A stretch of 64,000 nucleotides of DNA from Actinotalea sp. JY-7876 (lineage in GTDB: Bacteria; Actinomycetota; Actinomycetes; Actinomycetales; Cellulomonadaceae). Below are positions 1 to 48,464 of this stretch, piece after piece. A model generated the notes under the pieces. The model made no database searches, had not been told where the DNA came from, and worked only from the letters and a program-made list of their open reading frames with translations. The DNA is taken from the NCBI RefSeq assembly GCF_014042015.1, contig NZ_CP059493.1:2418001-2482000 (forward strand), read 5' to 3'. Position 1 is the first letter of the stretch. Each line of letters starts with the position of its first letter. The translations under genes were made by a program, and so were the position numbers.

Positions 1-1176
1 GAACCGCTCCCGGACGACCCGGAGGAGATCGCGGCGTGGAAGCTGGCCCGGCTGGACCTGCCGGGGGTCGAGCTCGGCGCCTCGATGCACGTGCGCCTGC
101 TCCTGGTGCGCGACCTGGATGACGCGATCGCCTTCCGTCGGCACGTGGACTTCCGGGTGGAGAGGTTCAACGAGCAGGCGGTGGTGCGCCACCAGGCGCA
201 GTGGGAGCGGCACCTGCGCGCCCTGGACGCCAAGGCGCGGGGCACCTGGCGCGGCGGCCGCCTGCCGCAGCGCCCGCCGGAGCACGTCGAGCTGCGCGAG
301 CACCCGGAGCAGGTGAAGGCCCGCACCGAGCAGCTGTTCGCCCAGCAGCTGGGCGCGGTGCTGGCCATTGCCCACTCCCGCGGCGCCCTGGTGGGACCCA
401 ACCCGTGGGACGGGTTCGCCCACGACCCGTCCCGGACCAAGGGGTACCGGGTCCCACGGCTGCTGCTGATCAACGAGCGGGTCGTGCCGGCGATCGGGCT
501 GGTCGCCGAGCTCGCCGAGGCGATCGCCGCCACCGGACCGGCCGACCCGGTCCGAGGGTGCCGCACCGGTGCCCGGTTCAGGGCCCTGGTGGTGGCCAGC
601 ACCAGTGCCTTGCGTCCCTCCGAGCTGTTCGGCCTGGGGCCCGGGGACTACCTGCGCGGGGAGGAGCCTCGGCTGCGGGTTTACCGTTCGCTGACCCACG
701 TGCCGGCGGCCCTGAACGACGGCAGCGGGACGTTCGTGAGCGAGGGGCCCAAGGGGCGCCAGGCCGGCGGCGTGCGGGAGGTCCCGATCCCCCGGGCGGT
801 GGCCGACGCCCTGGACGAGCACATCGCCGCCGGGTACGCGAGCAAGCACACGCTGTTCACCGGCCACGACGGCGGCCCGGTGAACTTCGGGAACATCACC
901 GCCACCCACTGGCGCCCGGCGGTGTCCGCGGTGTTCGGCCAGTCCAGCGTCCGCCAGCTGCGCGAGCTGGAGTTCCGGTGGCTGCGCAAGGCCGCCCTCA
1001 CCTGGATGCTGCGGGCCGGGCTGCACCCGACCAAAGTGGCCGAGATCGCCGGACACTCCGTGAACGTGCTGACCACCCACTACGCCGGCGTCGTGCACAG
1101 CCACAGCCAGCGGCACCTCTTCACGACCTGGGACGACGCCTGGGCGTGGGCGGTGCAGGAGACCGAGCTCGTCTGA
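1..1176 (+). CDS. Tyrosine recombinase (phage-type integrase), 5' end outside window
   Basis: The frame is open from base 1, so the start lies upstream; the first internal ATG is at 85. The C-terminal part carries tyrosine-recombinase landmarks: the first catalytic Arg in TSALRPSEL, a box-II-like WLRKAALTWMLRAG in which the usual HxxR His is replaced by Arg, a GHS motif (EIAGHS) and the nucleophile Tyr in TTHYAG near the end. Such enzymes integrate and excise mobile elements at att sites, often tRNA genes. The gene lies at the left end of an accessory block whose right end is a tRNA-Arg fragment at 23382-23430, so it may be the island integrase. A weak hairpin (1348-1366) follows. The altered box II leaves activity uncertain. 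Confidence 0.8.
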   Translation, partial: EPLPDDPEEIAAWKLARLDLPGVELGASMHVRLLLVRDLDDAIAFRRHVDFRVERFNEQAVVRHQAQWERHLRALDAKARGTWRGGRLPQRPPEHVELREHPEQVKARTEQLFAQQLGAVLAIAHSRGALVGPNPWDGFAHDPSRTKGYRVPRLLLINERVVPAIGLVAELAEAIAATGPADPVRGCRTGARFRALVVASTSALRPSELFGLGPGDYLRGEEPRLRVYRSLTHVPAALNDGSGTFVSEGPKGRQAGGVREVPIPRAVADALDEHIAAGYASKHTLFTGHDGGPVNFGNITATHWRPAVSAVFGQSSVRQLRELEFRWLRKAALTWMLRAGLHPTKVAEIAGHSVNVLTTHYAGVVHSHSQRHLFTTWDDAWAWAVQETELV

Positions 1177-5552: not shown

Positions 5553-5852
5553 TTGAGCCACGGGTTCGAGGTCGACGTCGACGTACTGCGGTCAGCGGCG
5601 CACCGCCTCACTGCACTGTCCGACGCCCTCGCCGGGTCGGGCGCGACCGATCTGCTCGAGGGCCGGAGCGCCTACGACGGGCACCTGGCCAGCGCAGCGA
5701 ACAACTTCGCCGACCGGTACGCGTACGCGATCGAACGCGCCACGGCCGCGCTTGACGAGCACGGGCAGAACCTGATCGCCGCCGCCAACCGGTACGACGA
5801 GACCGACACGACGGTCGACGTGTGCCTGGCCGACCCAGGAGCGCGCAGGTGA
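5553..5852 (+). CDS. WXG100/EspC-like type VII secretion small protein
   Basis: 99 residues starting at TTG with GGGGGAA upstream; an ATG at 5526 would add nine residues, but the TTG gives the family-typical opening (short N-terminus, then GFEVDVDVLRSAAHRL). The protein is an all-helical hairpin ending NRYDETD, like the Y-x-x-x-D tail of ESX/EspC-type substrates. Such small proteins pair with larger type VII effectors as partners. It overlaps the next gene by 4 nt (GTGA), in the order helper-toxin-immunity. No secretion machinery genes are in this window. Confidence 0.65.
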   Translation: MSHGFEVDVDVLRSAAHRLTALSDALAGSGATDLLEGRSAYDGHLASAANNFADRYAYAIERATAALDEHGQNLIAAANRYDETDTTVDVCLADPGARR

Positions 5853-7186
5853 TCGTCGACCTGTCGGCCGCCGCGACCGCACGCGACCTCATCGAAGGGG
5901 ACCCTGAGTCCCTGTTCGCCGACGCGGACAACCTCGAGGCGACCGGGACAGCTCTCGAGGGCCTGGCGGAAGCCGCTGTCGCAACCGACGTGGGGCCGTG
6001 GGACGGCGAAGCGCACGATGCGTACCTCGAGGCGATCCGCGGAACCCGGGCCGACATTTTCAAGGTCGTCGACGCGATGACCGCCGCCGCCTCGGCGCTG
6101 CGCCAGCACGCGTGGGCGCTGAAGTGGGCGCTGCGCCGCGCCCAGACTGCCCTGGACCTGTACCGCTCGGTGCCGCCGAACCTCGACGGTGGCTTCCCGC
6201 CAGAGGAGCACTCGCGCGCCTATTCGATCGTGGACGAGGCCCAGGAAGGCTCATGGTCCTCGACACTCGCCACCGCGCGGACCCTGAACGAGCTTGCCGC
6301 TCAGACCGAGTACCGGCCCACCTTCTGGAACCACGTCGGGTACCACGCCTCCGAGCTGTGGCACGGCGTCGTGGAGTCCGTCGACGGGCTCATCTCCCTG
6401 GTCTGGGACACGTCCCTGCCGCGGCTCATCATCGATCCCTCCGGCTGGGGCACCAGCGCCAGCGCCTACCTTTCGCTGCCCGGGCGGATCGCGGCCGACC
6501 CGGCCCAGTTCGGCAAGGACCTCATCGGGTACGACACCCTGATGACCAGCCCAGCCCGGTGGGCGGGGAACCTGGTGCCGGACCTCATCGCCGGCCTTGC
6601 CTCCGGTGGCACAGCTGCCGCCGTGACGCGCACCGCCCGTGCGACGTCTGTGGTCGCCCGTACCGCGCGCGACGTCGCCGAGGCGGCCGCCGGTGCCGGC
6701 GCGCGCCGCGCCGACGAGCTCACCGACGCAGCGACACAAGCGACGGGCGCCGCCAGGTACACCGCCGACGAGCTCGCAACCCCGACGCCGGGCGATGGAC
6801 CGGTGACGTTCCGCATCCGGGAGGACATGTCCGCCGAGGAGGTCACCCAGGTCCTGCGGTACGTCGACACCGCCAACGCCGCCCGCCTGGACGGCGCCCT
6901 GTCAGAGACCGGCCGGGTCGGCACCGGCGGGGAACTGCGTGAAGCGGCGAGCGACGCGGCCGCAGCCGAACGCGCTCGAGCGGCCGCCGCCGGCACCCCC
7001 TACCAGGGGCACGTCGGGCACGCCCCCGACACCACCTGGACAGGGCGCCCCGAGGCCTATGAGTGGCACGACCAGTCCCCGCTGGTGAACACCTCACTGG
7101 GCGGCAAGGCGCCGCAGTACCCCGTCGGTCACATCCCCACCGTGTTCGAAGCGGTAATGCCCGACGGATCACACGTGGCACGATGA
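5849..7186 (+). CDS. Polymorphic toxin with WXG-type N-terminus
   Basis: 445 residues. GTG start at 5849 overlaps the previous stop and has AGGAG upstream. The N-terminal 110 residues are helical with WDGEAHDAYLE, a WXG-like turn seen in type VII effectors. The middle (about residues 150-250) has hydrophobic stretches and is followed by an Ala-rich coil. The C-terminal 70 residues (from TPYQGHVGHAPDTTW, with later YPVGHIPTVF) are rich in His, Gly and Trp, like HNH/endonuclease-VII-type toxin tips, but I cannot name the fold. It is followed by an SMI1/KNR4-type immunity gene. Inferred role: contact-dependent inter-bacterial toxin. Confidence 0.65.
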   Translation: MIVDLSAAATARDLIEGDPESLFADADNLEATGTALEGLAEAAVATDVGPWDGEAHDAYLEAIRGTRADIFKVVDAMTAAASALRQHAWALKWALRRAQTALDLYRSVPPNLDGGFPPEEHSRAYSIVDEAQEGSWSSTLATARTLNELAAQTEYRPTFWNHVGYHASELWHGVVESVDGLISLVWDTSLPRLIIDPSGWGTSASAYLSLPGRIAADPAQFGKDLIGYDTLMTSPARWAGNLVPDLIAGLASGGTAAAVTRTARATSVVARTARDVAEAAAGAGARRADELTDAATQATGAARYTADELATPTPGDGPVTFRIREDMSAEEVTQVLRYVDTANAARLDGALSETGRVGTGGELREAASDAAAAERARAAAAGTPYQGHVGHAPDTTWTGRPEAYEWHDQSPLVNTSLGGKAPQYPVGHIPTVFEAVMPDGSHVAR

Positions 7187-7217
7187 CCGCCGTCCCACCC
7201 GCCGGAAGGAGTCACCC

Positions 7218-7763
7218 GTGAGCCAGGCCACCGCTCGACTCTGGGCCGCGAAGATCGGCCAGCTCGCCGAGCTGCGCATGCGCCTCGACACCGTTAGCCC
7301 GCTGTACCCGCTGACGGTCCCCAAGCTCGCCGCGACCCCCGCGGACGTCGCCGCGACCGAGCAGCGCCTCGGCCGGCCGCTGGACGCCCAGCACGCCGAG
7401 CTCCTCACCTTCATCAACGGGTGGGACTCGATGTTCGGCGACATCAGCCTGCTCTCCCTGGACCACCTGGGCCGCTCGGACCTGTGGCGCACCGGGGACA
7501 TGCTTCTCGGCTACCTATACGGCGAGCCGCCGCCGGGGCTGCCGCCACGCGAAGAGCTCGACATCATCGCGGTGTCCCAGTCCCAGGAGGACGTGTTTGC
7601 CGTGTGGCGCGGCGGCCAGCTCACCGACGGCGGGCACCCGGTCATCTGGTTCGCCAGCGAGCTCGTCGAGACTCAGGACAACGTCTATGAGTGGCTCGGC
7701 GCGATCATCCAGTACACCGAACGGCGACTGGACCGGCTGCGCGCCGCTGCCGAACGGCCGTAG
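7218..7763 (+). CDS. SMI1/KNR4 (SUKH) family immunity protein
   Basis: 181 residues, GTG start with GGAAGGAG about 7 nt upstream. It shows the SUKH signature: an acidic A-x-E-x-x-LG opening (DVAATEQRLGRPL), then LLTFINGWDSMFG, and a C-terminal region with WFASELVETQDNVYEWL. SUKH proteins bind and neutralise toxins delivered by contact-dependent or type VII systems. The position 31 bp after the toxin supports a cognate toxin-immunity pair. Confidence 0.75.
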   Translation: MSQATARLWAAKIGQLAELRMRLDTVSPLYPLTVPKLAATPADVAATEQRLGRPLDAQHAELLTFINGWDSMFGDISLLSLDHLGRSDLWRTGDMLLGYLYGEPPPGLPPREELDIIAVSQSQEDVFAVWRGGQLTDGGHPVIWFASELVETQDNVYEWLGAIIQYTERRLDRLRAAAERP

Positions 7764-8884: not shown

Positions 8885-9371
8885 CGCGCCGAAGGCCGGA
8901 GCCTCCACACGGCCGGATGCGTCCGCGCTGACCATGCGGTCACAGGGGCAGAGCCACACGGGGCTGGCTGCTCCTCGCGCCCATCTCCGGCGGCCGACGG
9001 ACAGACGACGCCGCCCCTGCCCGATCACCGCTCGCAGCGAGCACGGCCCGGGACCTCCGAGCCGTTGGGCGGCCATGCCCACGCGGCTCGGTGCGGGAGG
9101 TTGCGTCCAAGCCCCGAGCGCGGACGGTGCCCGTCGACGCAGCTGATGGTCAGCGAACGACGGGACGGAAGCGGCCGGTCGTCCGCTACCCGCCCTCTGG
9201 GACTCGTGCTATGCGTAGGTTAGAACCTACACTTGGGCATGGAGTACGGCACGGTGGTTCGTCTGACCAGAGACAGCGTCATGGCGGAGCAGGTTGGGCA
9301 CGCATGGCTCGTGCTCGCCTCACGCTACCCGCGAGCACGCACCGCGCATGCCGCTGTACTCGAAGGATGCG
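8885..9371. other. Intergenic region with a palindrome, promoter region of the recombinase-like gene
   Basis: About 490 bases without convincing coding potential. The one clear signal is the palindrome at 9215-9230, listed separately. In-frame TTG (9294) and ATG (9348) codons precede the chosen start of the next gene. Confidence 0.5.
9215..9230. promoter_or_regulatory. Palindromic operator candidate
   Basis: Perfect 7-bp inverted repeat GTAGGTT-AG-AACCTAC, about 140 bp upstream of the recombinase-like gene. Its AT-richness stands out locally. The small Xre-like protein encoded at 12727 is an obvious candidate binder, by inference only. Confidence 0.45.
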
Positions 9372-12300
9372 ATGGCGATGAACCCACTGATGATGGAGGC
9401 GCTACCCACTGGCGCCTGGTCGATCCCGCTCGGACCGGATGACCCCGTCCCGGTCAACGGGAGGATCCGTGCGCTCTTCGAGGTGCGGGAGTCAGACGAG
9501 AGCAACGAGCTGCTGTTCGACGCGATGCGCGAGCAGACCTACCAGCCGTACCAGAGCAACCCTTGGGTCGCTGCGGTCCTGGACGCCGGCATGGCACCCA
9601 TGCACGCGAAGGGGTCGTACACGTTCCGGGTGCGCTTCCCCAGCGGAGAAGTGCTTGAGCTGGTCGTGCTCATCCAGCGGCTCGTGCGCGGCCGGACGAC
9701 GGTGATCCGGTTCCAGGTCGGTCCCTTCCTGCACCTGTGGTCCATGGCTTCCGCCGCGAAGGCGAACGCCGCCGGCGACAACGACTTCACGCAGGTCCTT
9801 CTCGACGAGGTCCGCCAGGCACGCCCGCAGACCCTTGTCGCAGCGAACGTCAGTCGCCTGGTGCGATCCGACCAAGAAGGCGGCCTCCTCCTGAAGGTGC
9901 TGCCCGACCACGTCGACCAGATCTGCGCCGGCCCATTGACCATGAAGCTGGTCGGCGAGAACAGCGAGTACGGGCGCATGCAGTTCGCTGTCCTCGGAGC
10001 GATGGCGTCGATGGAACGCAACTGGATCGTCACGCGCCTGATGACCGGTCGGATCGCAGCAGGACGCCGCGGGGAATGGCTCTTCGGCAAGACGACCGTG
10101 CCTTTCGGCTACCGACTCGACGGCAAGCGGCTCGTGCCCGTGCCGGAGCTCGCCGGCCGCGTCCGGCAACTCCTGCTCGTCCTGGGAGATGACGTGTCGC
10201 CCGCGCTGACCGTCCGTCGCCTCGCAGAGGACGCCGTGCCGATGAAGCGGCCGCGAGACGATCGGACCGTCGGGGAGTCGGCCCGCGCCCGCAACAACCC
10301 GCGCGCCCTCGTCGACTCCTTCCTGGCGTGGGTACCGCTGTGGGTGACCGGCGAGTACGTGTGGCGGTTCTCCTCGCCGCTCAAGGGCATCGAGACCTTC
10401 GCCGGCGCCCCGGTCGTGTACGACGACGCGAACCCGCTCGCCAGGGGCGAGGTGCAGGTCCTGATGACTCCCGGAGTTCCCGAGGGCGGATGGGCCGAGC
10501 AGGCCCTCTTGGAACGCGTCGCGGAGGTCGCACGACGCCGATTCGCCGATCAGGTCCACGCGCAGGAACGCTCGCCCGACCGCCCGCTGGCCGACGCCGT
10601 CAGGGCCGGCTCCATGGCTGGGGACCTGCACGAGGCCGTCCTCGGCCCGAACAACGAGCACCGCCGCCCCGCCGTCCACAACCCGCGCCGGCGCGGCACG
10701 AAGACCCTGGCCGCGTTCTCCGGGTACGGCTGGCAGGAAGGCAACAACGCCTACGAGCTCTTGGTCGCCCCGCACGGGCGCTACAAGATTGTGGAGCGTG
10801 CTCCGTTGCCGCCCGCGACTGGGTCGGCCGTGGCCGCGGGTGGCGCAGCAACCCGCCCAGTCCGGCCCGCACCGAGTGTGACGCTGGCTTACGTCGACGA
10901 GGCGTCGATGATGCGAGGCTTCGTCCGGGCGTTCGCGGAGGCGTGCGCGTCCGGGGTGCCGGTCGAGCTGCGCGAGAACGTTCGCGCGTACCGGCTCGAG
11001 GACCGCAGTCACCTCATCGACGAGCGATCGCTCGCCCGCGAACGCCTCTTACGGGAGCTGCACACCGCCCGGCTCCGTCTGAGCAACGCCAAGCGATCGT
11101 CTCTCGACGCGACGTCCGAAACCCTGCGTGCGCAGTACGTTGCCTTCGCGGACGCGTATGCGGTGGAGGTCGAGGACCTCGATCGAGAGCTGTGCGATCT
11201 GGACCAGCAGCCCGCTGGCGGCCCGCCTCCGACCTTCGAGAGCGCCACCGATGTTCTTCTGGCGGCGATGGCGACGCTCGTCCGGGGGACGCGCCTGACG
11301 CCCGAGGAGCACGCCGCGCTTCGGATCCTGGTTCCCGATGTTCGGCTGGCCCGTGACCCGCACGGCGCGTGGACGGCGGAGGCGACCGTTCGTATGCCGG
11401 TCGCCGACGGTGTCGCCGAGCTCGGTCCCATCCAATGGCAGGTGGCCAGGTCCGGTGTCGGTGTGCCCTCGATGCGGGCGGCGCGGCGCGCGGCGCCGCA
11501 GACCGCTGAGTCCCGAGCCGAGGCCCGCTACCGCCTCGAGCATGACGCCGGGATCGCACCCGAGGCCGCCCGTCTGCTGACGGCCGCTCCGTTCCCGGAG
11601 CTGGCGCAACTGGTTCTGCACGCGCGCACCGGCAGGGCCCTCCCGGCGTGGCTCGACGAGCCGTGGCGCGAGCCCAAGTTCATGGCCCACGTCGCCGCCA
11701 CATACGGCGCCAACCCAAGTTCGTGGACCGGCCCGAGCCTCTACGGGCGACGGTTGCCGCGCGCTCAGGCGGTGGTCGACTGCACCGCGACCGCCGGGCG
11801 CCTCACTCTCGCCGGGTACCGCGACGTGATGCCGGGCGTCGACGCCAACGAGATGTGGGTCTTTGCCCGGTGGCACCAGGACGCCAGCCGGAGACGCGGC
11901 CCGGTGGTCAACCGCGAGATTGCAGCGGACGGCACGTGGTCGCTGACCAACCGCTTCTGCCGCTGCGGGAAGGCCGCGCTGTTCGTGGTGCACGCCCCAG
12001 AAATCACCGGGAGCCTGATGTGCGAATGCGGGCTCACGGTCGACGCCGATCCGGGGTCGACCGCCGACGGCGTCAGGTTCCCCGACGCGTACCGCACGCT
12101 GCGGGTCACCCGCGACCAGTGGATGCTGGACCTGCGCCGCACCTGCGGTCCCCTCCACGACGAGCTCAGCGAGGTCTCCGTTCGCCAGGCCAGCATCCTG
12201 CAGACGATGAGGTCCGACGTGCGGAGAGACTGGCGCGCCGTCGACCTGGCCCCGGTCTGCGGGATGAGCGCCCAGACGTGCCAGTGGAACCTCAACCAGC

Positions 12301-12416
12301 TCCGCCGCCGGGAGTTCGTACGCAGCACCGGGCGTCCGGCGCGCTTCGAGCTGGTGGCACCCGAGGATGTGGCGACCGTCCTTGCGAGGTCGTGGCGCCG
12401 ACGGCCCACGGCGTAG
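9372..12416 (+). CDS. Very large divergent serine-recombinase-like protein
   Basis: 1014 residues from ATG 9372 (GAAGGA 4 nt upstream; ATG 9348 also possible). Resolvase-type features: LVAANVSRLVRSDQEGG (the vkdlsRlsRs strand), YGRMQFAVLGAMASMERNWI followed by TRLMTGRIAAGRRG (the long helix of large serine recombinases) and PFGYRLDGKRLV, the recombinase-domain junction. A normal N-terminal Y-x-R-x-S catalytic motif is not evident; the nearest is a degenerate FEVRESDES. About 135 residues separate it from SRL, roughly double the usual distance. Late features are a helical coil (about 560-620) and a C-x-C/C-x-C zinc-ribbon-like pair (FCRCG...MCECG). It is either a divergent transposition enzyme or a repurposed DNA-binding component. 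Confidence 0.6.
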   Translation: MAMNPLMMEALPTGAWSIPLGPDDPVPVNGRIRALFEVRESDESNELLFDAMREQTYQPYQSNPWVAAVLDAGMAPMHAKGSYTFRVRFPSGEVLELVVLIQRLVRGRTTVIRFQVGPFLHLWSMASAAKANAAGDNDFTQVLLDEVRQARPQTLVAANVSRLVRSDQEGGLLLKVLPDHVDQICAGPLTMKLVGENSEYGRMQFAVLGAMASMERNWIVTRLMTGRIAAGRRGEWLFGKTTVPFGYRLDGKRLVPVPELAGRVRQLLLVLGDDVSPALTVRRLAEDAVPMKRPRDDRTVGESARARNNPRALVDSFLAWVPLWVTGEYVWRFSSPLKGIETFAGAPVVYDDANPLARGEVQVLMTPGVPEGGWAEQALLERVAEVARRRFADQVHAQERSPDRPLADAVRAGSMAGDLHEAVLGPNNEHRRPAVHNPRRRGTKTLAAFSGYGWQEGNNAYELLVAPHGRYKIVERAPLPPATGSAVAAGGAATRPVRPAPSVTLAYVDEASMMRGFVRAFAEACASGVPVELRENVRAYRLEDRSHLIDERSLARERLLRELHTARLRLSNAKRSSLDATSETLRAQYVAFADAYAVEVEDLDRELCDLDQQPAGGPPPTFESATDVLLAAMATLVRGTRLTPEEHAALRILVPDVRLARDPHGAWTAEATVRMPVADGVAELGPIQWQVARSGVGVPSMRAARRAAPQTAESRAEARYRLEHDAGIAPEAARLLTAAPFPELAQLVLHARTGRALPAWLDEPWREPKFMAHVAATYGANPSSWTGPSLYGRRLPRAQAVVDCTATAGRLTLAGYRDVMPGVDANEMWVFARWHQDASRRRGPVVNREIAADGTWSLTNRFCRCGKAALFVVHAPEITGSLMCECGLTVDADPGSTADGVRFPDAYRTLRVTRDQWMLDLRRTCGPLHDELSEVSVRQASILQTMRSDVRRDWRAVDLAPVCGMSAQTCQWNLNQLRRREFVRSTGRPARFELVAPEDVATVLARSWRRRPTA

Positions 12417-12726: not shown

Positions 12727-13038
12727 GTGCCTCGGAGATCGAACTCGTACCGCACGCCTCGGGAGTGGCTGGCCGACGGCGAGTGGCCGGAGGGCACCTT
12801 CGAGCCCGACTCGCCCACCGCGGTCGCGTACGCGGTAGAAATCGCGCGTCGGCTGGAGCGCAGCCTCGGGACCCGGTCGAAGGCGGCACTCGCGCGCGAG
12901 GCCAACCTTGAGCGTTCGACCCTCTACGACGTCCTGGCAGGCCGTAGCTGGCCCGACGCCGTGACGATCGCCCAGCTGGAGCAGGCCCTCCAGACGCGGC
13001 TGTGGCCGGACCACCCGGTCCCACCGCTTCGCAGCTGA
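12727..13038 (+). CDS. Small helix-turn-helix regulator (Xre-like)
   Basis: 103 residues, GTG start. A predicted helix-turn-helix runs from about residue 50 (SKAALAREANLERSTLYDVL, then AGRSWPDAVTIAQLEQAL): helix, AREANL turn, recognition helix STLYDVLAG, as in Xre/Cro proteins. The N-terminal part (REWLADGEWPEGTFEPDSP) may contact a partner. It sits 190 bp before the helicase-methyltransferase pair on the same strand, as expected for a controller (C-protein-like) of a restriction or defence operon. Confidence 0.7.
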   Translation: MPRRSNSYRTPREWLADGEWPEGTFEPDSPTAVAYAVEIARRLERSLGTRSKAALAREANLERSTLYDVLAGRSWPDAVTIAQLEQALQTRLWPDHPVPPLRS

Positions 13039-13228: not shown

Positions 13229-16200
13229 GTGACTCGGATCTTCGACAACATCCGCATCGAGCTCGGTCCGCACCTGCGCCAGACGCTGGCCGAGTTCGAC
13301 CGGATGGACGTCGCCGTCGGCTACTTCAACCTGCGCGGCTGGCGCACCTTCGACGACCTCGTCGCGGCCAAGCCCGTCATCCCCGGCACTGCGACCGTGC
13401 GGATCCTCATCGGGATGGTCATGCCGACCCCGCAGGACGCCACCCTCGCGGAGCTCCAGCGCACCCTCGACGGCACCCCCGACCCCGACGCGGACCGCGC
13501 CATGGCGGTCGAGCGCAAGGCCCAGATCGTCGAGCACCTGCGTGAGCAGCTCATGAGGGGCGTGCCGACCGCGGCCGACCGCGCCACCCTCGGGTCCCTG
13601 CGCGACCTCATCGCCGCCGGCGCCGTCCAGATCAAGGTCTTCACCCGCAAGCCGCTCCACGGCAAGGCCTACGTCTTCCACCGCAACGACCTGACCAACC
13701 CCATCGTCGGGTTCGTCGGCTCGTCGAACCTGACCGGGCCAGGGCTGACGACGAACCTCGAGCTGAACGTCGACGTCGTCGACGGCGTCGCAGCCAAGGA
13801 TGTCGCCAACTGGTTCACCGACCTGTGGGACGACACCCGCTCCATCCCCGTCACCGACGACATCCTCGAGCTGCTCGAGCAGTCCTGGGCAGCGCCCACG
13901 CCCAGGCGGCCCTACGACGTCTTCCTCAAGGTCTGCTACGACCTGTCACGCGACGTGCGCGAAGGGCTCGCGGAGTACTCCGTGCCCAGCGAGGTCTCCG
14001 GCAAGCTCCTGGAGTTCCAGGCGACCGCGGTGCGCACCCTCGCGCGACGCGTCATGTCGCGACGCGGGACGATGCTCGGGGACGTCGTCGGCCTCGGCAA
14101 GACCCTGACCGCCGTCGCCGTCGCCCTGATGCTGCGCGACGAGCACGGGTTCCGGCCCCTGATCGTCTGCCCGAAGAACCTCATGTCCATGTGGACCGAG
14201 CACCTGGAGGCGTACGGTCTCCACGGCGGCACGGTCGTGTCCTACTCGCGCGCCCACACCGACCTGGACAACCTCCGCGGGCGGTACGGCCTGGTCATCG
14301 TCGACGAGTCCCACACGCTGCGCCACGAGGAGACCCGCGCGTACGCAGCCCTCAAGGACTACCTGACCGTCAACGACTGCCGCGTCCTGCTTCTGACCGC
14401 GACCCCGTACAACATCCGCTTCACCGACGTCGCGAACCAGCTCGGCCTCTACATCGGACCCGACGACGACCTGGGCCTGTCCCCGACCGCCGCCCTGGCC
14501 GCCGACCCCGACCTTCGACGCAAGGTCAACGGCAAGATCACCACCCTGGAGGCGTTCCGCCGCTCGGACTCCCCCGAGGACTGGAAGCGCCTGATGAGCG
14601 AGCACCTGGTGCGCCGCACCCGCTCGTTCATCCAGCGCAACTTCGCCAAGCCCGGCCGCGACGGCAAGCAGTACCTGGAGTTCCGCGACGGGCGCCGCTT
14701 CACGTTCCCCACCCGCGTGCCGCGACCCGTCACGCACTCCTTCGGGCCGGACGACCCAGCGACCCTCATGGCCGCGGACACGACCCTGGACGCCATCCGA
14801 TCCCTGGAGCTGCCACGGTACGAGCTCGGCGCCTACCTCGCCGGCGACGTCGTCCACACCGTCTCCGAACGCAAGTACGTCGAGAACGTCGTGGCCGGCG
14901 GCGGGCAGGTCGCCGGGTTCGTCCGCACGACCCTGTTCAAGCGCCTGTCCTCCAGCGGGTACTCCTTCATCCTGTCCCTGCGCCGGCACGTGGCCCGCAA
15001 CGAGCTGTTCCTGTATGCGATCGCCCAGGGCCTGCCGATCCCGACCGGGTCCATCGCCGACCTTCACCTCGGCGACGCCGACCCGACCGAGGCAGACCTG
15101 GACGGCGCCAGCGCCGCGACCGACGCCGCGACGCGCTACGCCGAGCTCGAGCGCGCTAACCCCCGCGGCCTGACGTGGGTGCGCCCCGCCCTGTTTACCG
15201 ACGCCCTGACCGAGGACCTCCAGCACGACACCGACGTCATTCGCGGGCTCCTCGAGCAGTACGGCACCTGGTCGACGGCCGCAGACTCCAAGCTCGCCGC
15301 TCTCGTCGAGCTGCTCACCGTCACCCACCCGGACGAGAAGGTCCTGATCTTCACCGAGTACAAGGACACCGCGGACTACGTCGGCCAGGCGCTGCTCGAC
15401 GCCGGCATCACGGGCGTCGGCGTCGCGACCGGCTCCAGCGCCCACCCGACCCGCCTCGCCCACCGGTTCTCCCCGCACTCCAACCGGCTGCCGGGAGCTG
15501 ACCCGCTGCCGCCCGAGGACGAGCTGCGCGTCCTGGTTGCAACGGACGTCCTGTCCGAAGGGCAGAACCTCCAGGACGCCCACATCGTCATCAACTTCGA
15601 CCTGCCGTGGGCGATCATCCGCCTCATCCAGCGCGCCGGGCGTGTGGACCGCATCGGGCAGGCCTCGGACGAGGTCATCGTCTACTCCTTCTTCCACGAC
15701 TCCGTCGACGCAGTCATTGACCTGCGCCGGCGCATCGCTGACCGGCTCAAGGCCAGCGCCGCGGCGTTCGGCTCCGACGAGCAGTTCTTCGGCGACGAGA
15801 CCGGCTTCGGCACCGACGAGGACGCACACAGGCTCGGCGAGCTGTACAACGGGACGCTCGAGGACCCCGACGACGAAGGCGAGGTCGACGCGGCGTCCCT
15901 GGCGTATCAGTACTGGGTCGCCGCGACCAAGGACGACCCCGAGCTCGCCGAGCGCATATCCACGCTGCCCGACCTCGTCGACGCCACCCGGGCACGTCGC
16001 GTCACCGAGAGCGACGAGGGCGTCGCGTGCTTCGTGCGCACCACGTCCAACCTCGACGGGTTCGGGTTCGCCCTGCCCAACGGCACGACGCGTCTCATCA
16101 CCGGCCAGGAAGCGCTGCGCGTATTCGAAGCCCACCCAGACGAGGCCGGCCTGCCGCTGCGCGAGGACCACGACCAGCTGCTGCTGGCGCTCGTGCGCGG

Positions 16201-16501
16201 GCCGCTCGCCGCGCCACCCGGGTCCTCCGGCGCCCTGACCGGGGTGCGCCGCGCCATCTGGCACCGTCTGGGCAACACCCTTCAGGACCCCGAGACCAGT
16301 GAGGCGCTCGGCGCGCTGTATGACCACCCGCTGACCTCCGAGGCCGAGCGGCGCCTGCGCAAGGCCGTCCGCGACGGCGTCAACGACGACGACCTCGCGA
16401 CCCGCGTGTCCCTGCTCCACCGCGACAACCAGCTCGTCATCGGAGCCCGCGCCGGGTCCGACCCCGTCCGCATCGTCTCCAGCATGGGAGTGCGCCCGTG
16501 A
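13229..16501 (+). CDS. PLD-nuclease/SNF2-helicase fusion protein
   Basis: 1090 residues, GTG start with AGAAGGA upstream. N-terminal phospholipase-D-type nuclease domain: H-x-K at 144-146 (PLHGKAYVF) and the GSSNLT motif at about 164-169. It is followed by an SF2/SNF2 helicase: Walker A GLGKT (288-292), LIVCPKNLMSMW, DESH (359-362), LLTATPYN (388-395), then the second RecA lobe with LIFTEYKDTADYV, VLVATDVLSEGQNLQDA and RLIQRAGRVDRIGQ (about 770-815). The C-terminal 200 residues are unrecognised. ATP-driven DNA translocation coupled to a PLD nuclease is used in several restriction and defence systems (DISARM has DrmD helicase and DrmC PLD as separate proteins). The stop overlaps the methyltransferase start by 4 nt. 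Confidence 0.85.
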   Translation: MTRIFDNIRIELGPHLRQTLAEFDRMDVAVGYFNLRGWRTFDDLVAAKPVIPGTATVRILIGMVMPTPQDATLAELQRTLDGTPDPDADRAMAVERKAQIVEHLREQLMRGVPTAADRATLGSLRDLIAAGAVQIKVFTRKPLHGKAYVFHRNDLTNPIVGFVGSSNLTGPGLTTNLELNVDVVDGVAAKDVANWFTDLWDDTRSIPVTDDILELLEQSWAAPTPRRPYDVFLKVCYDLSRDVREGLAEYSVPSEVSGKLLEFQATAVRTLARRVMSRRGTMLGDVVGLGKTLTAVAVALMLRDEHGFRPLIVCPKNLMSMWTEHLEAYGLHGGTVVSYSRAHTDLDNLRGRYGLVIVDESHTLRHEETRAYAALKDYLTVNDCRVLLLTATPYNIRFTDVANQLGLYIGPDDDLGLSPTAALAADPDLRRKVNGKITTLEAFRRSDSPEDWKRLMSEHLVRRTRSFIQRNFAKPGRDGKQYLEFRDGRRFTFPTRVPRPVTHSFGPDDPATLMAADTTLDAIRSLELPRYELGAYLAGDVVHTVSERKYVENVVAGGGQVAGFVRTTLFKRLSSSGYSFILSLRRHVARNELFLYAIAQGLPIPTGSIADLHLGDADPTEADLDGASAATDAATRYAELERANPRGLTWVRPALFTDALTEDLQHDTDVIRGLLEQYGTWSTAADSKLAALVELLTVTHPDEKVLIFTEYKDTADYVGQALLDAGITGVGVATGSSAHPTRLAHRFSPHSNRLPGADPLPPEDELRVLVATDVLSEGQNLQDAHIVINFDLPWAIIRLIQRAGRVDRIGQASDEVIVYSFFHDSVDAVIDLRRRIADRLKASAAAFGSDEQFFGDETGFGTDEDAHRLGELYNGTLEDPDDEGEVDAASLAYQYWVAATKDDPELAERISTLPDLVDATRARRVTESDEGVACFVRTTSNLDGFGFALPNGTTRLITGQEALRVFEAHPDEAGLPLREDHDQLLLALVRGPLAAPPGSSGALTGVRRAIWHRLGNTLQDPETSEALGALYDHPLTSEAERRLRKAVRDGVNDDDLATRVSLLHRDNQLVIGARAGSDPVRIVSSMGVRP

Positions 16502-19251
16502 CCACCAGCTCGGCCCTGCTCAAGCGTGTCGACACCGGAGACTTCGAGAGCCTGTTCATCGAGGAGCTCGGCTGGTCCAACCCCGATCGGCGACCGCTGC
16601 CTGTGACCCTCGCCGACGGCTCGACCTACACCCTGACCCAGGTCGCCGGGTACAAAGGGATGCGCGTGTGGGCCTGCGCGACCCTGCCGGACCCCGCGGT
16701 CCAGAGGGCCATCGACGCCGTCGTCGGCAGGGACAACCACGAGCGGCTCGTGATCTTCACCGACGGATCCGAGCAGCACTGGCGCTGGCCGCGACGCGGC
16801 CGGGCCTCGGTCGCCAACGCGTCGCTGCTCACGCATGCGCACCACGTCGGGGACACCAACCCGCACCTGACCGAGAAGCTCCACGCGATCACCATCGGCT
16901 ACGACGAGGACCCGAGCCTCGTCGAGCTCATGACACGGATGCGGGCCGCGTTCGACGCGGAGGCCGAGACGGCCGCCGTCCGGGCGGCGCGTCTGATGAA
17001 GGAGCTGTACACGCAGCTCAAGGGCGCTCGGCTCACCGAGGACGCCGCGACGCTGCTCCTGGCCAGACTGCTGTTCCTGCTGTTCGCCGACGACACCGGC
17101 ATGTGGAAGGTCAAGCCGGACCTGTTCAAGTCCTTCCTCGAGAACCACACCACGAGCGCCACCCTCCACACCAACCTGCACGCGCTCTTCGACGTCCTCA
17201 ACACCGCCGACCAGGACCGGCACCTTCCCGCCGGTTCGCCGTACGCAATCTTCCGCTACGTCAACGGCGGCCTGTTCGGTGAGCTCCTCGCGTTGCCCGC
17301 GCTCCCGGCGGCGTTCCGCGACAAGCTGCTCGAGGCTTGCAACTTCGACTGGGCGACGATCTCCCCGGCCGTGTTCGGGTCCATGTTCCAGACCGTCAAG
17401 CAGCCCGAAGCGCGCCGGGCCGGCGGCGAGCACTACACGACCGAGCAGAACATCCTCAAGACGATCGGCCCGTTGTTCCTGGACGAGCTGAACGACCGAC
17501 TCGACCGCGCGATGGACGACAAGGCTCAGCTGACCAGGTTCATCAACGACCTCAGCAAGATCCGGATCCTGGACCCCGCGTGCGGCTGCGGGAACTTCCT
17601 CGTCGTCGCCTACCGCGAGCTTCGTGCCCTCGAGCTCCGCGCACTCATCCGGCGCCGCGACCTGGACCTGCTGTCCGGCATCCACACAGGTGGCATCAAT
17701 CGCTCGCAGATGACCCTGGACGTCACCGAGCACGTGCGCGTGACGCTCGACCACTTCTTCGGGATCGAGATCGACGAGTGGCCCGCGCGCATCGCAGGGA
17801 CCGCGATGCTGCTCGTGGACCACCTCGCGAACCAGAACATGGAGGAGGAGTTCGGTCTCGCGCCCGACCGGCTCCCGATCCGGCTCGCCCCGAAGATCCA
17901 CCTCGACAACGCGCTGCGGATCGACTGGCAGACCGTCGTGCCCGCGAGCGCTGACGTCGTCATCGTCGGCAACCCTCCCTTCAGCGGTGACCGCCTGGCC
18001 ACGAGCGACCAGAAGGGGGACCTGCGTCGCGCCTGGGGACGCGAGACCCTCAAGCACCTGGACTACGTCACCGGCTGGTACGCCAAGGCCGCCGCGTACT
18101 ACGGCGATCTGCCGGGCAAGTGGGCGTTCGTCTCGACGAACAGCGTCTCCCAGGGCGAGCAGGTCATCGAGCTGTGGCAGCCACTGCTTCGCGCCGGGTG
18201 GCGCTGCCGCTTCGCGCACCGCTCCTTCGAGTGGCTCACCGAGGCCGAAGGGCGGGGCGCCAAGGTCCACGTGTCGATCGTCGGCTTCGACCGCGCGAGC
18301 ACACCCGCACCGCAGCTGTGGACGTACGCACCGGGCGGCAAAGGCCCAGGGACCGTCTCAGGCGTCGCGCACATCAACCCGTACCTGCTGGACGCCCCCG
18401 ACGTCCTGGTCCGAACTCACGAGAAGCCCCTGTCGCCCGACCTGCCCGAGGTGATGATGGGCAACATGCCTCGGTGCAAGAGCCTGGTCGTCGAGGCCGA
18501 GGACTACACGGACGTGGTGGCCGACCCGATCGCCGCCCAGTACGTGCGGCCCTACCTCGGGACGGACGAACTGGTCAGCGGGGACGCGCGGTGGTGCCTG
18601 TGGCTGCCTGGGGTCACGCAGGCCGAGATCGACGCGAGCCCCGTCCTGACCGCGCGAGTCACGGGCTCGAGGAACGAGCGGCTCCTGTCCAGGGCCGCCG
18701 AGACCCGCAAGCTCGCCGCAACCCCGCACCTGTTCGCCCAGCGCACCCAGCCTCCCGGCCCTGTCCTTGTGATCCCCGGACTGGCCATGGAGAAGCGGCG
18801 CTTCTTGACCGTCGGGCACTTCGACGGCGGCGTCGTCACCAGCAACCTGGTGTTCTGCGCCGCAGACCCCGACAGCTTCGCCTTCGGGGTCCTGTCGTCG
18901 TCGATGTTCATGGCCTGGATGTGCGCGATTGGGGGCCGCCTGAAGTCCGACCCGCGCTTCTCCAAGACGTTCAACTACAACTCCTTCCCCTTGCCGCGCG
19001 TCAGCTCGGCGCAGCGCGCAGCCGTCGTGGACGGCGCCCTGGCCGTCCAGCGCGCTCGTGCGCAGGAACCCGGGCTCTCCCTGGAGGAGCTGTACGAGGG
19101 CGGGCGCCTCTCTGCTGCGTTGGAGGAGGCGCATGCGCAGCTGGACTCGGCTGTCGATGCGGTGTTCGCCTGCACCGACCGCACCGACCTGGGGCGTCAG
19201 CGACTGCTGCTGAGTCGATACGCGAAGATGACCGCCGGCTTGCCGGTCTGA
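16498..19251 (+). CDS. MmeI/YeeA-like adenine-N6 DNA methyltransferase
   Basis: 917 residues, GTG start inside the helicase stop (GTGA). The order of conserved blocks matches the MmeI/YeeA group (COG1002-like): a helical spacer (LLFLLFADDTGMW, about residues 195-210), VFGSMFQ...GGEHYTTEQNILK, SAM-binding motif I DPACGCGNF (about 359-367), catalytic NPPF (about 492-495), target-recognition segment with RPYLGTDEL and RWCLWL, and a terminal GRLKSDPRFSKTFNYNSFP block. NPPF indicates N6-adenine methylation. The first 130 residues contain no PD-ExK nuclease motif I can see, so cleavage would fall to the partner PLD-helicase. Together they look like a two-gene restriction-modification-type defence module. 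Confidence 0.85.
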   Translation: MTTSSALLKRVDTGDFESLFIEELGWSNPDRRPLPVTLADGSTYTLTQVAGYKGMRVWACATLPDPAVQRAIDAVVGRDNHERLVIFTDGSEQHWRWPRRGRASVANASLLTHAHHVGDTNPHLTEKLHAITIGYDEDPSLVELMTRMRAAFDAEAETAAVRAARLMKELYTQLKGARLTEDAATLLLARLLFLLFADDTGMWKVKPDLFKSFLENHTTSATLHTNLHALFDVLNTADQDRHLPAGSPYAIFRYVNGGLFGELLALPALPAAFRDKLLEACNFDWATISPAVFGSMFQTVKQPEARRAGGEHYTTEQNILKTIGPLFLDELNDRLDRAMDDKAQLTRFINDLSKIRILDPACGCGNFLVVAYRELRALELRALIRRRDLDLLSGIHTGGINRSQMTLDVTEHVRVTLDHFFGIEIDEWPARIAGTAMLLVDHLANQNMEEEFGLAPDRLPIRLAPKIHLDNALRIDWQTVVPASADVVIVGNPPFSGDRLATSDQKGDLRRAWGRETLKHLDYVTGWYAKAAAYYGDLPGKWAFVSTNSVSQGEQVIELWQPLLRAGWRCRFAHRSFEWLTEAEGRGAKVHVSIVGFDRASTPAPQLWTYAPGGKGPGTVSGVAHINPYLLDAPDVLVRTHEKPLSPDLPEVMMGNMPRCKSLVVEAEDYTDVVADPIAAQYVRPYLGTDELVSGDARWCLWLPGVTQAEIDASPVLTARVTGSRNERLLSRAAETRKLAATPHLFAQRTQPPGPVLVIPGLAMEKRRFLTVGHFDGGVVTSNLVFCAADPDSFAFGVLSSSMFMAWMCAIGGRLKSDPRFSKTFNYNSFPLPRVSSAQRAAVVDGALAVQRARAQEPGLSLEELYEGGRLSAALEEAHAQLDSAVDAVFACTDRTDLGRQRLLLSRYAKMTAGLPV

Positions 19252-21964: not shown

Positions 21965-22208
21965 CCCGGCGACCCGGGTCGGGGCCCTGCGTCGGATAGC
22001 CGACCAGCTCGGGATCAACCCAGAGACGTTGCGGAACTGGGTGACCCAGGCCGAGGTCGATGCCGGTGACCGGCCCGGCACGACCACCAGCGACGCGCTG
22101 CGCCTGGCTGAGCTCGAGCGGGAGAACCGCGAGCTGCGTCGGGCCAACGCGATCCTGAAGAGCGCGTCGGCTTTCTTCGCGGCGGAGCTCGACCGCCCAC
22201 AACGGTGA
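21891..22208 (+). CDS. IS3-family transposase OrfA
   Basis: 105 residues, ATG 21891 with GGAGG upstream. The N-terminal helix-turn-helix is KYPDELRERAIRMAVDARRD, then RIADQLGINPETLRNWVTQA. The C-terminal leucine zipper LAELERENRELRRANAILK ends with KSASAFFAAELDRP, the standard OrfA tail. It binds the IS ends as part of OrfAB transposase. Intact, but its catalytic partner is lost. Confidence 0.9.
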   Translation: MAAPRKYPDELRERAIRMAVDARRDPATRVGALRRIADQLGINPETLRNWVTQAEVDAGDRPGTTTSDALRLAELERENRELRRANAILKSASAFFAAELDRPQR

Positions 22209-22290
22209 TCGTGGAGTTCATCGACGAGCACAGGAGTTTGGGGTCGAGCCGATCTGCAGGCAGCTGCTCGCCAAGCACATCGTCGTGACG
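22205..22290 (+). pseudogene. IS3 OrfB start, frameshifted and truncated
   Basis: GTG at 22205 overlaps the orfA stop and encodes VIVEFIDEHR, the typical OrfB opening. A one-base shift is then needed to recover FGVEPICRQLLAKH. The sequence diverges after the VVTP codons near 22290, before any DDE catalytic residue. Confidence 0.7.
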
Positions 22291-23339: not shown

Positions 23340-23729
23340 CGCCATGGACCGCATCGTCCGGAACGAGCAACACACCTACCGTCTGCCTCCGGAGCAGAAG
23401 GCCGCAGGTTCGATTCCTGCCGCGGGCACCGATCAGAGCCCCGGTCCACCCATGGTGGCCGGGGCTCCGTCGTCCCCGCATCGCTGCGCGGAGATCGCGG
23501 AGATCATCGCGATGTCGGACGGGTCAGAGCTCCGTCAGCGATCCCGCCACTCTGCGGGTCCGGCTCAGGCACAACGGTGCGTGACCGTGCCATTGGTTCA
23601 CGGCGCGGTCCCACATCACGGCCAGCGGCCGTGAGCTCACCCCGACGACGCCGAGGCGCCGCTCATCGCGTACTCGCGGCCATGGACCGCACCGAACGAC
23701 CCGAGCAACACACCTACCGTCTGCCTCCG
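23340..23729. repeat. Direct repeat pair flanking a 290-bp segment (tandem att-like scars)
   Basis: Copy 1 (about 23340-23391) and copy 2 (about 23680-23729) share a perfect 28-bp core (23364-23391 and 23702-23729, starting CGAGCAACACACCTACCG) plus a similar flank beginning CCATGGACCGCA. Copy 1 runs into the tRNA-Arg 3' half. Copy 2 runs into a visibly eroded version of the same sequence (for example GCGCGGGCATGG where copy 1 has CCGCGGGCACCG). This fits two successive integration events at one site. Confidence 0.65.
23382..23430 (+). other. 3' half of tRNA-Arg(CCG): likely attachment site (attR) of the island
   Basis: The sequence folds as the 3' half of a tRNA: anticodon arm TCTGC-CTCCGGA-GCAGA (anticodon CCG at 23389-23391), variable loop AGGCC, T arm GCAGG-TTCGATT-CCTGC, acceptor strand CGCGGGC, discriminator A and CC. 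The D arm and 5' acceptor strand are absent, so it is not a functional gene. Tyrosine recombinases integrating into tRNA 3' ends leave exactly such a duplicate at the far boundary; the complete tRNA gene should lie left of this window. Confidence 0.8.
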
Positions 23730-23918
23730 AAACAAGGGCCCCAAGTGCGATCTCGCGCGGGCATGGCGGCTCGGCCAGCCGCCAGGCACGACGGTGACCG
23801 GCGCGATGCCTTGCTTTGGATCGGCGAGGCTCCCGAAGGCATCGGCAGCCACATACGACTCCCGCGTCCCTCGGCGCAGCACCTGCTGGGTCAGTCCCCC
23901 GATCTCCATTCGGCCCCG

Positions 23919-28903: not shown

Positions 28904-28929
28904 GGTGCAACTCCTTCGTCGTTCGGTGC

Positions 28930-29012
28930 GTCCGGCCGACCTCGAGGGTCCCGTGACTTTGCGTCCCCACCTCGCGGTGGGTTTGCCCTTGTCGCTGACG
29001 GGGACAGGTTCC
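28930..29012 (-). promoter_or_regulatory. Cyclic-di-GMP-I (GEMM) riboswitch in the bldC leader
   Basis: Read on the minus strand, the leader contains AGGGCAAACC, a CCACC-GCGA-GGTGG hairpin with a GNRA tetraloop (loop at 28975-28972), then GGGACGCAAAG and a second hairpin GACC-CTCGA-GGTC. These are the conserved blocks of the GEMM-I aptamer in the correct order, including the tetraloop that docks into its receptor helix. It lies upstream of bldC and close to its ribosome site, so control of translation or of early termination by c-di-GMP is likely. Exact ends are approximate. Confidence 0.8.
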
Positions 29013-47183: not shown

Positions 47184-48272
47184 TCAGCGCACGACCCCGG
47201 CGCCGCGGAGCTCGATCGTCAGGTCCTGCGGGTTGGTCGAGACCAGGCACGCGTCCTCGTAGGTCACCACCCCGTCCCGCACGAGGCGGAAGAGGTGCTG
47301 GTCGAACGTCTGCATCTGGTAGTACTCCCCCTCCTTGATCAGGTCGTGGAGGGGCGGGGCGTCGTACGGGTCGGCGATCGCGTCCGCCGTGCGTCCCGTG
47401 TTGACCAGGACCTCGACCACAGCGACGCGCCCCGTGCCGTCGGCCTTGCGCACGAGGCGCTGGGAGACGATCCCCCGCAGCGCCTGGGCGAGCGCGTGGC
47501 GCACCTGCTTCTGCTCGTGCGGCGGGAAGAAGTCGACGACGCGGTTGACGGTCTCCTGCGCGTCGATCGTGTGGAGGGTCGACATGACGAGGTGGCCGGT
47601 CTCGGCCGCCGACAGGGCCGCGCGCACCGTCTCGACGTCACGCATCTCCCCCACCAGGATGACGTCCGGGTCCTGACGCATCGCGGCGCGCAGCGCGACG
47701 GTGAAGTCGGCCGTGTCGAACCGGACCTCGCGCTGGGAGACGATCGCCTTCTTGTCGGGGTGCAGGATCTCGATCGGGTCCTCGATCGTGACGATGTTGC
47801 ACTCCTTGACGGTGTTCACGAGGTCCACCATCGAGGCGAGCGTCGTCGTCTTGCCCGAGCCGGTCGGCCCCGTGACGAGCACCAGGCCGCGCGGCTCCAG
47901 CGCGAGCTCGCCCAGCACGGAGGGCAGCGCGAGCTCGGCGAGCGACTGGGCACCGAACGCCACCCGCCGGAAGACGAGGCCGAGCGTGCCGCGGGCCTGG
48001 TAGGCGTTGACGCGGAACCGGCCCACGCCGGGCAAGGAGAAGGCGAAGTCCGCCTCGTGCGACGTCGCGAAGGCGTCGACCATCTCCGGCGGGATCACCT
48101 CGGAGACCATGTGCGCGGTGTCCGCCGGGCGCAGGTCGCGTACCTGGAGACGCCGCAGGCGCCCGTCCACGCGCACGCGCGGGGCGGACCCGACCTTGCA
48201 GTGCAGGTCCGAGCCGTCGCTCGCGACCAGGGCGTGCAGGAGGGGGATGACGGACTCCGGCGCTTCACTCAC
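47184..48272 (-). CDS. PilT-like type IV pilus retraction ATPase
   Basis: 362 residues, GTG start at 48272. N-terminal PAS-like domain (SDGSDLHCKVGSAPRVRVDG), then the secretion-ATPase core: Walker A GPTGSGKTTT (135-144), Asp box TIEDPIE, atypical Walker B VGEMRD, and His box STLHTIDAQETVNRVVDFFP, with AIRSQ-like PilT motif LRGIVSQRLV. Cytoplasmic hexamer that pulls in type IV pili. No pilin genes neighbour it, so partners must lie elsewhere. Confidence 0.88.
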   Translation of the reverse strand: MSEAPESVIPLLHALVASDGSDLHCKVGSAPRVRVDGRLRRLQVRDLRPADTAHMVSEVIPPEMVDAFATSHEADFAFSLPGVGRFRVNAYQARGTLGLVFRRVAFGAQSLAELALPSVLGELALEPRGLVLVTGPTGSGKTTTLASMVDLVNTVKECNIVTIEDPIEILHPDKKAIVSQREVRFDTADFTVALRAAMRQDPDVILVGEMRDVETVRAALSAAETGHLVMSTLHTIDAQETVNRVVDFFPPHEQKQVRHALAQALRGIVSQRLVRKADGTGRVAVVEVLVNTGRTADAIADPYDAPPLHDLIKEGEYYQMQTFDQHLFRLVRDGVVTYEDACLVSTNPQDLTIELRGAGVVR

Positions 48273-48458: not shown

Positions 48459-48464
48459 GCCGTC

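What the first reader, a model, noticed from the sequence alone, without database searches (positions are those of the whole stretch)
13229..19251. Two-gene defence candidate: PLD-SNF2 helicase fused protein plus MmeI/YeeA-like methyltransferase
The sequence shows a PLD nuclease motif and a complete SNF2 helicase in one chain, with a 4-nt overlap to an adenine methyltransferase that lacks an evident nuclease. Known relatives (DISARM with DrmC and DrmD, YeeA/YeeB in Bacillus) split these parts among more proteins. Inference: a compact restriction-type anti-phage system in which the methyltransferase marks self DNA and the PLD-helicase destroys unmarked DNA.
Basis: partly seen in the sequence, partly recalled or inferred. 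Interest (0 to 1): 0.8.

Follow-up and report, generated by a model that had tools for sequence, protein, structure and literature searches.

The report
Two-gene ATP-dependent restriction-modification system
Two overlapping genes on a mobile island encode a DNA-marking enzyme and a motor-nuclease, most likely a compact bacterial immune system that cuts unmarked foreign DNA; similar gene pairs occur in many bacterial phyla, and one such pair was already noted in a dairy bacterium in 2018.

Summary
Gene 1 (13229-16501) is a PLD nuclease fused to a SNF2 motor; gene 2 (16498-19251, GTGA overlap) is an MmeI-like adenine methyltransferase without a conserved nuclease motif. Of the 80 closest helicase relatives kept by one scan, 74 have the methyltransferase beside them; the other 6 end within 502 bp. 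PLD and helicase residues are near-invariant in 91 helicases; the one copy without the PLD lysine also has a truncated methyltransferase. Four unpaired MmeI-like relatives keep D-x9-10-ExK; two paired ones have another N-terminal domain. The recognition domain varies almost independently of the helicase. By elimination, one relative is M.Ssp6803IV of Synechocystis (GAm6AGGC). I read it as an ATP-dependent restriction-modification system whose cleavage is outsourced to a PLD-motor, carried on a ~24.6 kb tRNA-Arg island; about a quarter of related loci add a DprA-like gene, absent here. Restriction itself is untested. The architecture was noted for a lactococcal plasmid in 2018 (PMC6098607): a widespread, apparently unnamed variant, not a new kind.

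The parts
13229..16501 (+). PLD nuclease-SNF2 translocase, 1090 aa (candidate R subunit)
13229..13849 (+). N-terminal single PLD domain (about residues 1-207, boundary approximate); H144-x-K146 at 13658-13666, GSSN 164-167 at 13718-13729, E178 at 13760-13762
   Evidence: Pfam PLDc_2 113-200; residue counts in 91 homologues; AF2 secondary structure
13976..15661 (+). SNF2 helicase core: motif I 284-292 (14078-14104), DESH 359-362 (14303-14314), motif VI 801-811 (15629-15661)
16498..16501 (+). GTGA overlap of stop and start codons
   Evidence: a 4-nt overlap also in L016, L019, L028-L030, L033, L034, L036, L037, L039, L043, L044, L047, L083, L088
16498..19251 (+). MmeI-like N6-adenine methyltransferase, 917 aa (candidate M/S subunit)
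16498..16962 (+). N-terminal domain (about residues 1-155) shared by paired enzymes; no Pfam family above its cut-off, no conserved D...ExK
17503..18300 (+). methylase domain 336-601; DPACGCGNF 359-367 at 17572-17598; NPPF 492-495 at 17971-17982
18391..18999 (+). MmeI-type target recognition domain 632-834
23380..23483 (+). right-hand 104-bp direct repeat (attR-like, carries the 3' part of tRNA-Arg); the left copy lies 1.09-1.19 kb before the window start and covers the 3' part of an intact tRNA-Arg(CCG) gene
1..1176 (+). 3' part of the tyrosine integrase gene of the island (frame begins about 640 bp before the window)
   Evidence: Phage_integrase 28.4 bits, cut-off 27.1

Best explanation
A two-subunit, ATP-dependent restriction-modification system derived from the MmeI (type IIL) family. 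The methyltransferase reads a short asymmetric sequence through its recognition domain and methylates adenine on one strand of host DNA. On unmethylated DNA it recruits the PLD-SNF2 protein; ATP-driven movement along the duplex, probably until it meets another complex or a block, triggers double-strand cutting by a PLD active site formed by two protomers. Shown here: the gene pair, the domains, conserved catalytic residues, another domain in place of the MmeI nuclease, covariation of the machinery with near-independent variation of the recognition domain. Inferred: complex formation, translocation, cleavage, target site, defence.
For: Pair in 74 of 80 loci of one scan; the other 6 end at most 502 bp after the helicase. 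In 91 aligned helicases H144 91, K146 90, N167 91, E178 91, Walker lysine 91, D359 and E360 91, R805 and R808 91; the single K146 loss (L021) goes with a 285-aa methylase remnant. MmeI fold over 768 columns, E 7e-61. Four of four single-frame unpaired MmeI-like relatives have D-x9-10-E-x-K and no helicase in the fetched flanks; two of two paired ones lack the motif. Helicase identity follows the methylase N-terminal domain (rho 0.89 and 0.60 in two groups) but hardly the recognition domain (0.27 and 0.09), 63 loci. The pSYSX relative is M.Ssp6803IV, GAm6AGGC, by elimination. SauUSI shows that a PLD-SF2 dimer can translocate and cut (PMC7913695 passages). Mobile setting: a tRNA-Arg island absent from three fetched same-genus genomes, plasmids, viral contigs.
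Against: No test of restriction by any member was found. PMC6560206 says Synechocystis 6803 expresses no active RM system, although it carries this pair. The analogous DnmA-YeeB-YeeC of B. subtilis restricted neither plasmid transformation nor three phages, though homologues in Vibrio crassostreae affected sensitivity to some phages (PMC7261158 and PMC9973331 passages). Foldseek matches the helicase model best to RapA and eukaryotic remodellers with low whole-length TM (mostly 0.15-0.29 by query); SauUSI is at rank 47. hhalign does not connect the N-terminal domain with true MmeI-like nuclease domains (probability 0.1%), so a degenerate nuclease is not shown. A DprA-like third gene stands downstream in 24 of 92 related loci, so two genes may not be the whole system everywhere. 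The low recognition-domain correlation may partly reflect poor alignment there.
Confidence: 0.83

Rival explanations
1. The methyltransferase now acts alone as an epigenetic regulator and the PLD-SNF2 gene is a relic of a former restriction system.
For: B. subtilis DnmA is described as such a relic; Synechocystis is described as having no active RM system.
Against: Here both genes are intact and overlap by 4 nt, and the catalytic residues are near-invariant in 91 helicases. A relic nuclease would decay, as in L021.
Confidence: 0.07
2. The pair is the core of a larger multi-gene defence (DISARM-like, BREX-like, or with a DprA-like third component).
For: DrmD, BrxH and HKD+Snf2 models match the helicase in 43 of 43 scanned members; BREX-related type 2 has an HKD-SNF2 helicase. 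A DprA-like gene lies on the same strand after the methylase in 24 of 92 core loci, 24 of the 69 with at least 1500 bp after it, with 4-nt overlaps in four; an AAA ATPase plus DUF4276 pair follows it in 6 loci.
Against: The DprA-like profile has no hit in the window and the two commonest extra families are missing from most loci. No DUF499 in the genome; its one MZB match lies at 475 kb, over 1.5 Mb from the pair; no DrmA/DrmB match among 13 other island or flanking proteins scanned; DrmD scores 136 bits against a cut-off of 610.
Confidence: 0.06
3. A type IV-like or abortive system: the PLD-SNF2 protein attacks modified DNA or the cell itself and the methylase only tunes it.
For: SauUSI, a PLD-SF2 enzyme, attacks methylated DNA.
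Against: SauUSI carries its own SRA recognition domain; none is recognised by Pfam in protein 1, while the partner has the recognition domain and that diversifies.
Confidence: 0.04

Closest known systems
Lactococcus lactis plasmid pLd8 orf33-orf34(-orf35), PMC6098607 (section 10 read)
   Same: PLD + SNF2 + helicase_C protein next to a 'type IIG' methylase without restriction domain; the authors proposed that the PLD protein restricts and noted the resemblance to DISARM class 1.
   Different: pLd8 itself was not compared here. A lactococcal plasmid locus of the same architecture (pJM1F, L024) has a PLD-helicase about 27% identical, an Eco57I-type methylase and an inverted TaqI-like specificity piece beside an invertase gene. 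The section reports no survey or test.
DnmA(YeeA)-YeeB-YeeC of B. subtilis and Vibrio (PMC9973331 and PMC7261158 passages)
   Same: MmeI-like methylase without endonuclease motif, asymmetric 6-nt m6A site, separate helicase partner.
   Different: Three genes, methylase first, no PLD reported in the helicase in the passages seen, YeeC is T5orf172/GIY-YIG.
MmeI, type IIL (5hr4)
   Same: Spacer, methylase, recognition and C-terminal domains colinear; 38% identity in the structural alignment.
   Different: MmeI carries its own PD-ExK nuclease; here that place holds another domain and cleavage would be in trans.
Type ISP (LlaBIII, LlaGI)
   Same: Translocase, nuclease and one-strand m6A methylase working together (recalled; translocation-coupled cleavage passages; LlaBIII is a weak structural match of the methylase model).
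   Different: One chain and another nuclease type (recalled).
SauUSI and NgoAVII/CglI (PMC7913695 passages)
   Same: PLD nuclease coupled to an SF2 ATPase.
   Different: SauUSI reads methylated DNA through SRA; NgoAVII/CglI split PLD and ATPase and use a B3 recognition domain.
BREX-related type 2 (PMC12839542 passages)
   Same: N-terminal HKD nuclease fused to a Swi2/Snf2 helicase, with an N6-methylase.
   Different: Has a DUF499 ATPase and DUF3780; no DUF499 in this genome; DUF3780 not tested.

Membership tests
Type IIL / IIG (MmeI family; PADLOC REase_MTase_IIG) | MmeI methylase-TRD-C-terminal architecture | tested here: met
Type IIL / IIG (MmeI family; PADLOC REase_MTase_IIG) | N-terminal PD-ExK nuclease in the same chain | tested here: not met
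   No conserved D...ExK: a loose pattern occurs in 13 of 64 paired enzymes at scattered places and not in this one; PADLOC and MmeI matches start at residues 143 and 160
DISARM | DrmA and DrmB beside the methylase | tested here: not met
   No DrmA or DrmB match among 4 + 9 neighbouring proteins scanned with PADLOC; the only MZB match is over 1.5 Mb away. The link of MZB to DrmB is recalled; DrmA was not sought genome-wide
BREX-related type 2 | DUF499 ATPase | tested here: not met
   0 matches in the genome; the search rings in one of 14 control genomes
NCBIfam NF042964 phospholipase D-like anti-phage protein | score above the curated cut-off | tested here: not met
   153.5 bits against 1100
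DnmA-YeeB-YeeC | separate helicase and GIY-YIG/T5orf172 gene | tested here: not met
   Two-gene locus with a PLD-SNF2 partner; definition
ATP-dependent restriction-modification (broad kind) | translocase with nuclease domain paired with a sequence-specific methylase | tested here: met
   by sequence and conservation only
ATP-dependent restriction-modification (broad kind) | methylation-sensitive, ATP-dependent cleavage | not testable with these tools
   needs biochemistry

The most novel reading that the evidence does not exclude
A distinct, widespread class of restriction system in which a type IIL enzyme exchanged its own nuclease domain for a docking domain and hands cleavage to a PLD-SNF2 translocase, so that one-strand methylation is safe after replication because cutting needs two unmethylated complexes meeting on the DNA. 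The closest PADLOC model labels its methylase a self-sufficient type IIG enzyme.
Probability: 0.5. Interest if true: 0.6.

Novelty: new variant of a known kind. Interest (0 to 1): 0.45.

Why it matters
Such pairs also sit on plasmids and in viral contigs. The best PADLOC model for the methylase is a self-sufficient type IIG enzyme, which it can hardly be without a nuclease. The family is a minimal two-protein model for coupling site recognition, translocation and cutting, and one member has a known target, GAm6AGGC, so the mechanism can be tested directly in a laboratory strain.

Tried and rejected
Viral scan with the single protein found no relative; the alignment found 9 loci, 5 of them with the methylase, one cut off at the contig end and three distant. 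In GenBank phages only two partial helicase matches. The idea that the methylase N-terminal domain is a decayed PD-ExK nuclease: the order of strands and helices is compatible by eye, but hhalign against four true nuclease domains gives 0.1% probability, so it is not claimed; some non-actinobacterial members have AEKK with an upstream Asp, not conserved. Rfam did not explain the 104-bp repeat; it is the 3' part of tRNA-Arg plus downstream sequence. Hagemann 2018 (dsy006) and Morgan 2009 (PMC2731913) are not held, so the gene name of M.Ssp6803IV was not read. Paper searches for prior descriptions. Of the ten papers I opened, only PMC6098607 describes this gene pair; listed papers that I did not open may too.

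Rows dropped and limits: the 80 loci are the best of at least 531, so 74 of 80 says nothing about more distant relatives. Eleven distant helicases (L004-L014, at most 936 bp after them) showed no methylase; L022, L024 and L025 have an adjacent weak or other-type methylase match, L023 has none by my profile though its record annotates a DNA methyltransferase about 4 kb upstream. The covariation test kept loci with a near-complete methylase over 550 bits and a helicase over 1000 aa: 63, pairs not independent. In the phylum sample 8 of 396 genomes had a methylase match: this one and G270 paired, four single-frame unpaired (read), two in two pieces (G492, G543; not read). G455 had the helicase but no match to gene 2 at 1e-50; the fetched stretch shows a methylase-profile hit upstream, 191 bits, and the helicase at the contig end.

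Full report
Observation. Protein 1 has an N-terminal PLD domain and a SNF2-type helicase; protein 2 has the spacer, methylase, recognition and C-terminal domains of MmeI. AlphaFold models: protein 2 pLDDT 87, pTM 0.79, best PDB match MmeI 5hr4, E 7e-61, 38% identity; protein 1 pLDDT 80, pTM 0.74, matched best by RapA and other Swi2/Snf2 motors at low whole-length TM, with the PLD-helicase SauUSI at rank 47.

Conservation of the pair. tblastn on plasmids found 103 records with a match to protein 1, 21 covering at least 80%. Of these I fetched seven close ones (Rhodococcus, Microbacterium, Pseudarthrobacter, Synechocystis pSYSX, Anabaena, Dolichospermum, Pelobacter); seven of seven have a methylase homologue next downstream, after two small genes in pSYSX, truncated in Dolichospermum and shortened in Microbacterium. 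A methylase profile hits 74 of these 80, on the same strand; 67 lie downstream and 7 upstream (L046, L048, L049, L050, L054, L097, each in two frames, and L067 with only a 69-bit piece at a contig end). The 6 without a hit end at most 502 bp after the helicase. Record titles show actinobacteria, cyanobacteria, Pseudomonadota, Acidobacteria, Chloroflexi, Planctomycetota, Nitrospirota and others.

Extra genes. Clustering of 1897 flanking frames from 92 core loci shows one frequent further family: a protein of about 200 aa on the same strand after the methylase in 24 of 92 loci (24 of the 69 with at least 1500 bp after it), with 4-nt overlaps in L069, L108, L110 and L111. Six of six scanned copies match the DprA family (five above the Pfam cut-off) and the PADLOC PsyrA model. 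It is not in the window. An AAA ATPase plus DUF4276 pair follows the methylase in 6 loci. So the pair is the shared core and a DprA-like protein is a frequent companion outside the window's own group.

Catalytic residues. In 91 aligned helicases H144, N167, E178, the Walker A lysine, D359, E360 and the motif VI arginines are invariant and K146 is kept in 90. The exception, L021 from Dolichospermum, also has only a 285-aa methylase remnant: one case of joint decay. The position of the canonical PLD aspartate (recalled motif) holds His here (read).

Where is the nuclease? The phmmer and PADLOC matches of protein 2 begin at residues 160 and 143. In a phylum sample of 396 genomes, 8 had a match to protein 2: this one and G270 are paired; four single-frame relatives (L125-L128, 35-47% identical) start matching at residue 149 or later, each has D-x9-10-E-x-K, and none has a helicase-profile hit in the fetched flanks; two in two pieces were not read. 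The sample's helicase search at E 1e-120 listed only this genome, G270 and G455. So paired enzymes carry another N-terminal domain. No Pfam family reaches its cut-off in ten tested members, and hhalign does not connect it to the nuclease domains.

Covariation. Over 63 loci, pairwise identities of helicase and methylase parts were compared. Within 18 actinobacterial loci Spearman rho with the helicase was 0.89 for the N-terminal domain, 0.83 spacer, 0.69 methylase, 0.27 recognition domain; within 45 others 0.60, 0.50, 0.49 and 0.09. The pairs are not independent and the recognition domains align poorly. The pattern fits a machine whose specificity module is exchanged, as in restriction systems, and suggests, without proving, that the N-terminal domain belongs to the coupling.

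A member with a known target. Synechocystis 6803 has two DNA methyltransferases on pSYSX, M.Ssp6803IV and V (PMC6604393 passage); V is slr6095 of a type I system and IV makes GAm6AGGC (PMC7296061 passages). The plasmid's feature table, seen over its whole length, shows besides the type I cluster at 88430-97901 only one DNA methyltransferase, at 47827-51129, third gene after the PLD-SNF2 gene. By elimination this is M.Ssp6803IV; the PLSDB table can be incomplete. The complement GCCTTC has no adenine, so m6A marks only one strand. After replication one daughter is unmarked at each site; cutting must then be conditional, for which the two-site collision of type III and ISP enzymes is the known solution (recalled). 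This step is inference.

Setting. A 104-bp repeat, 99% identical, lies at 23380-23483 and 1.09-1.19 kb before the window start, there over the 3' part of an intact tRNA-Arg(CCG) gene; a phage-type integrase frame follows. Three fetched same-genus genomes have the left flank with the tRNA gene, and the right flank from about 5.2 kb beyond the right repeat, and no island DNA; a fourth (G011) has about 13 kb of other DNA at the site. The pair thus rides on a roughly 24.6 kb tRNA-Arg island that also holds a resolvase-domain protein and other cargo.

Comparison. The same domain pair was described in 2018 for plasmid pLd8 of L. lactis with the same guess of function (PMC6098607, section 10 read). 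YeeA/DnmA systems share the methylase logic with other partners and gave no phage protection in B. subtilis. BREX-related type 2 shares the HKD-SNF2 fusion but has DUF499. Membership of type IIG fails on the missing nuclease, of DISARM on missing DrmA/DrmB beside it. I file it as a new variant of ATP-dependent restriction-modification, likely an unnamed but common family.

Against. No restriction or anti-phage test of a member was found; Synechocystis is said to express no active RM system; translocation, docking and two-site cutting are by analogy.

Noticed in passing
24 related loci, e.g. L066 15593-16207, L074 15714-16349, L108 9784-10425; not in the window: A DprA-family gene (PADLOC PsyrA-like) follows the methylase, in some with a 4-nt overlap: a possible third component of the system in other phyla.
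   Followed up: partly
L015, L062, L065, L073, L094, L095, L100, L103 between helicase and methylase genes: Of 17 loci with more than 200 nt between the two genes, 8 hold toxin- or antitoxin-like genes there by annotation or Pfam (VapC, PIN, MazE, ParE, Gp49, zeta toxin); L076 looks similar by eye only.
   Followed up: partly
window 1-23483 and 1.2 kb upstream: About 24.6 kb island in tRNA-Arg(CCG) with integrase and 104-bp repeats; no island DNA at this site in three fetched same-genus genomes.
   Followed up: yes
window 23679-23734: Degenerate second copy (86%) of 56 nt overlapping the right repeat, perhaps a remnant of another integration; relatives have 2 to 5 kb less DNA between repeat and right flank.
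   Followed up: no
window 9294-12416 and 12727-13038: 1040-aa resolvase-domain protein and a small HTH-like protein upstream of the pair; a regulatory role was not tested.
   Followed up: no
window 5822-7763: Protein with a putative T7SS signal domain followed by a sub-threshold SMI1/KNR4 match; looks like a secreted effector and immunity pair.
   Followed up: no
window 22169-22273 and 28922-28997: ALIL pseudoknot at an IS3-like element, and a c-di-GMP-I riboswitch on the minus strand.
   Followed up: no
L024 (L. cremoris pJM1F): Related PLD-helicase with Eco57I-type methylase and an inverted TaqI-like specificity piece beside a DNA invertase gene, suggesting phase-variable specificity.
   Followed up: no
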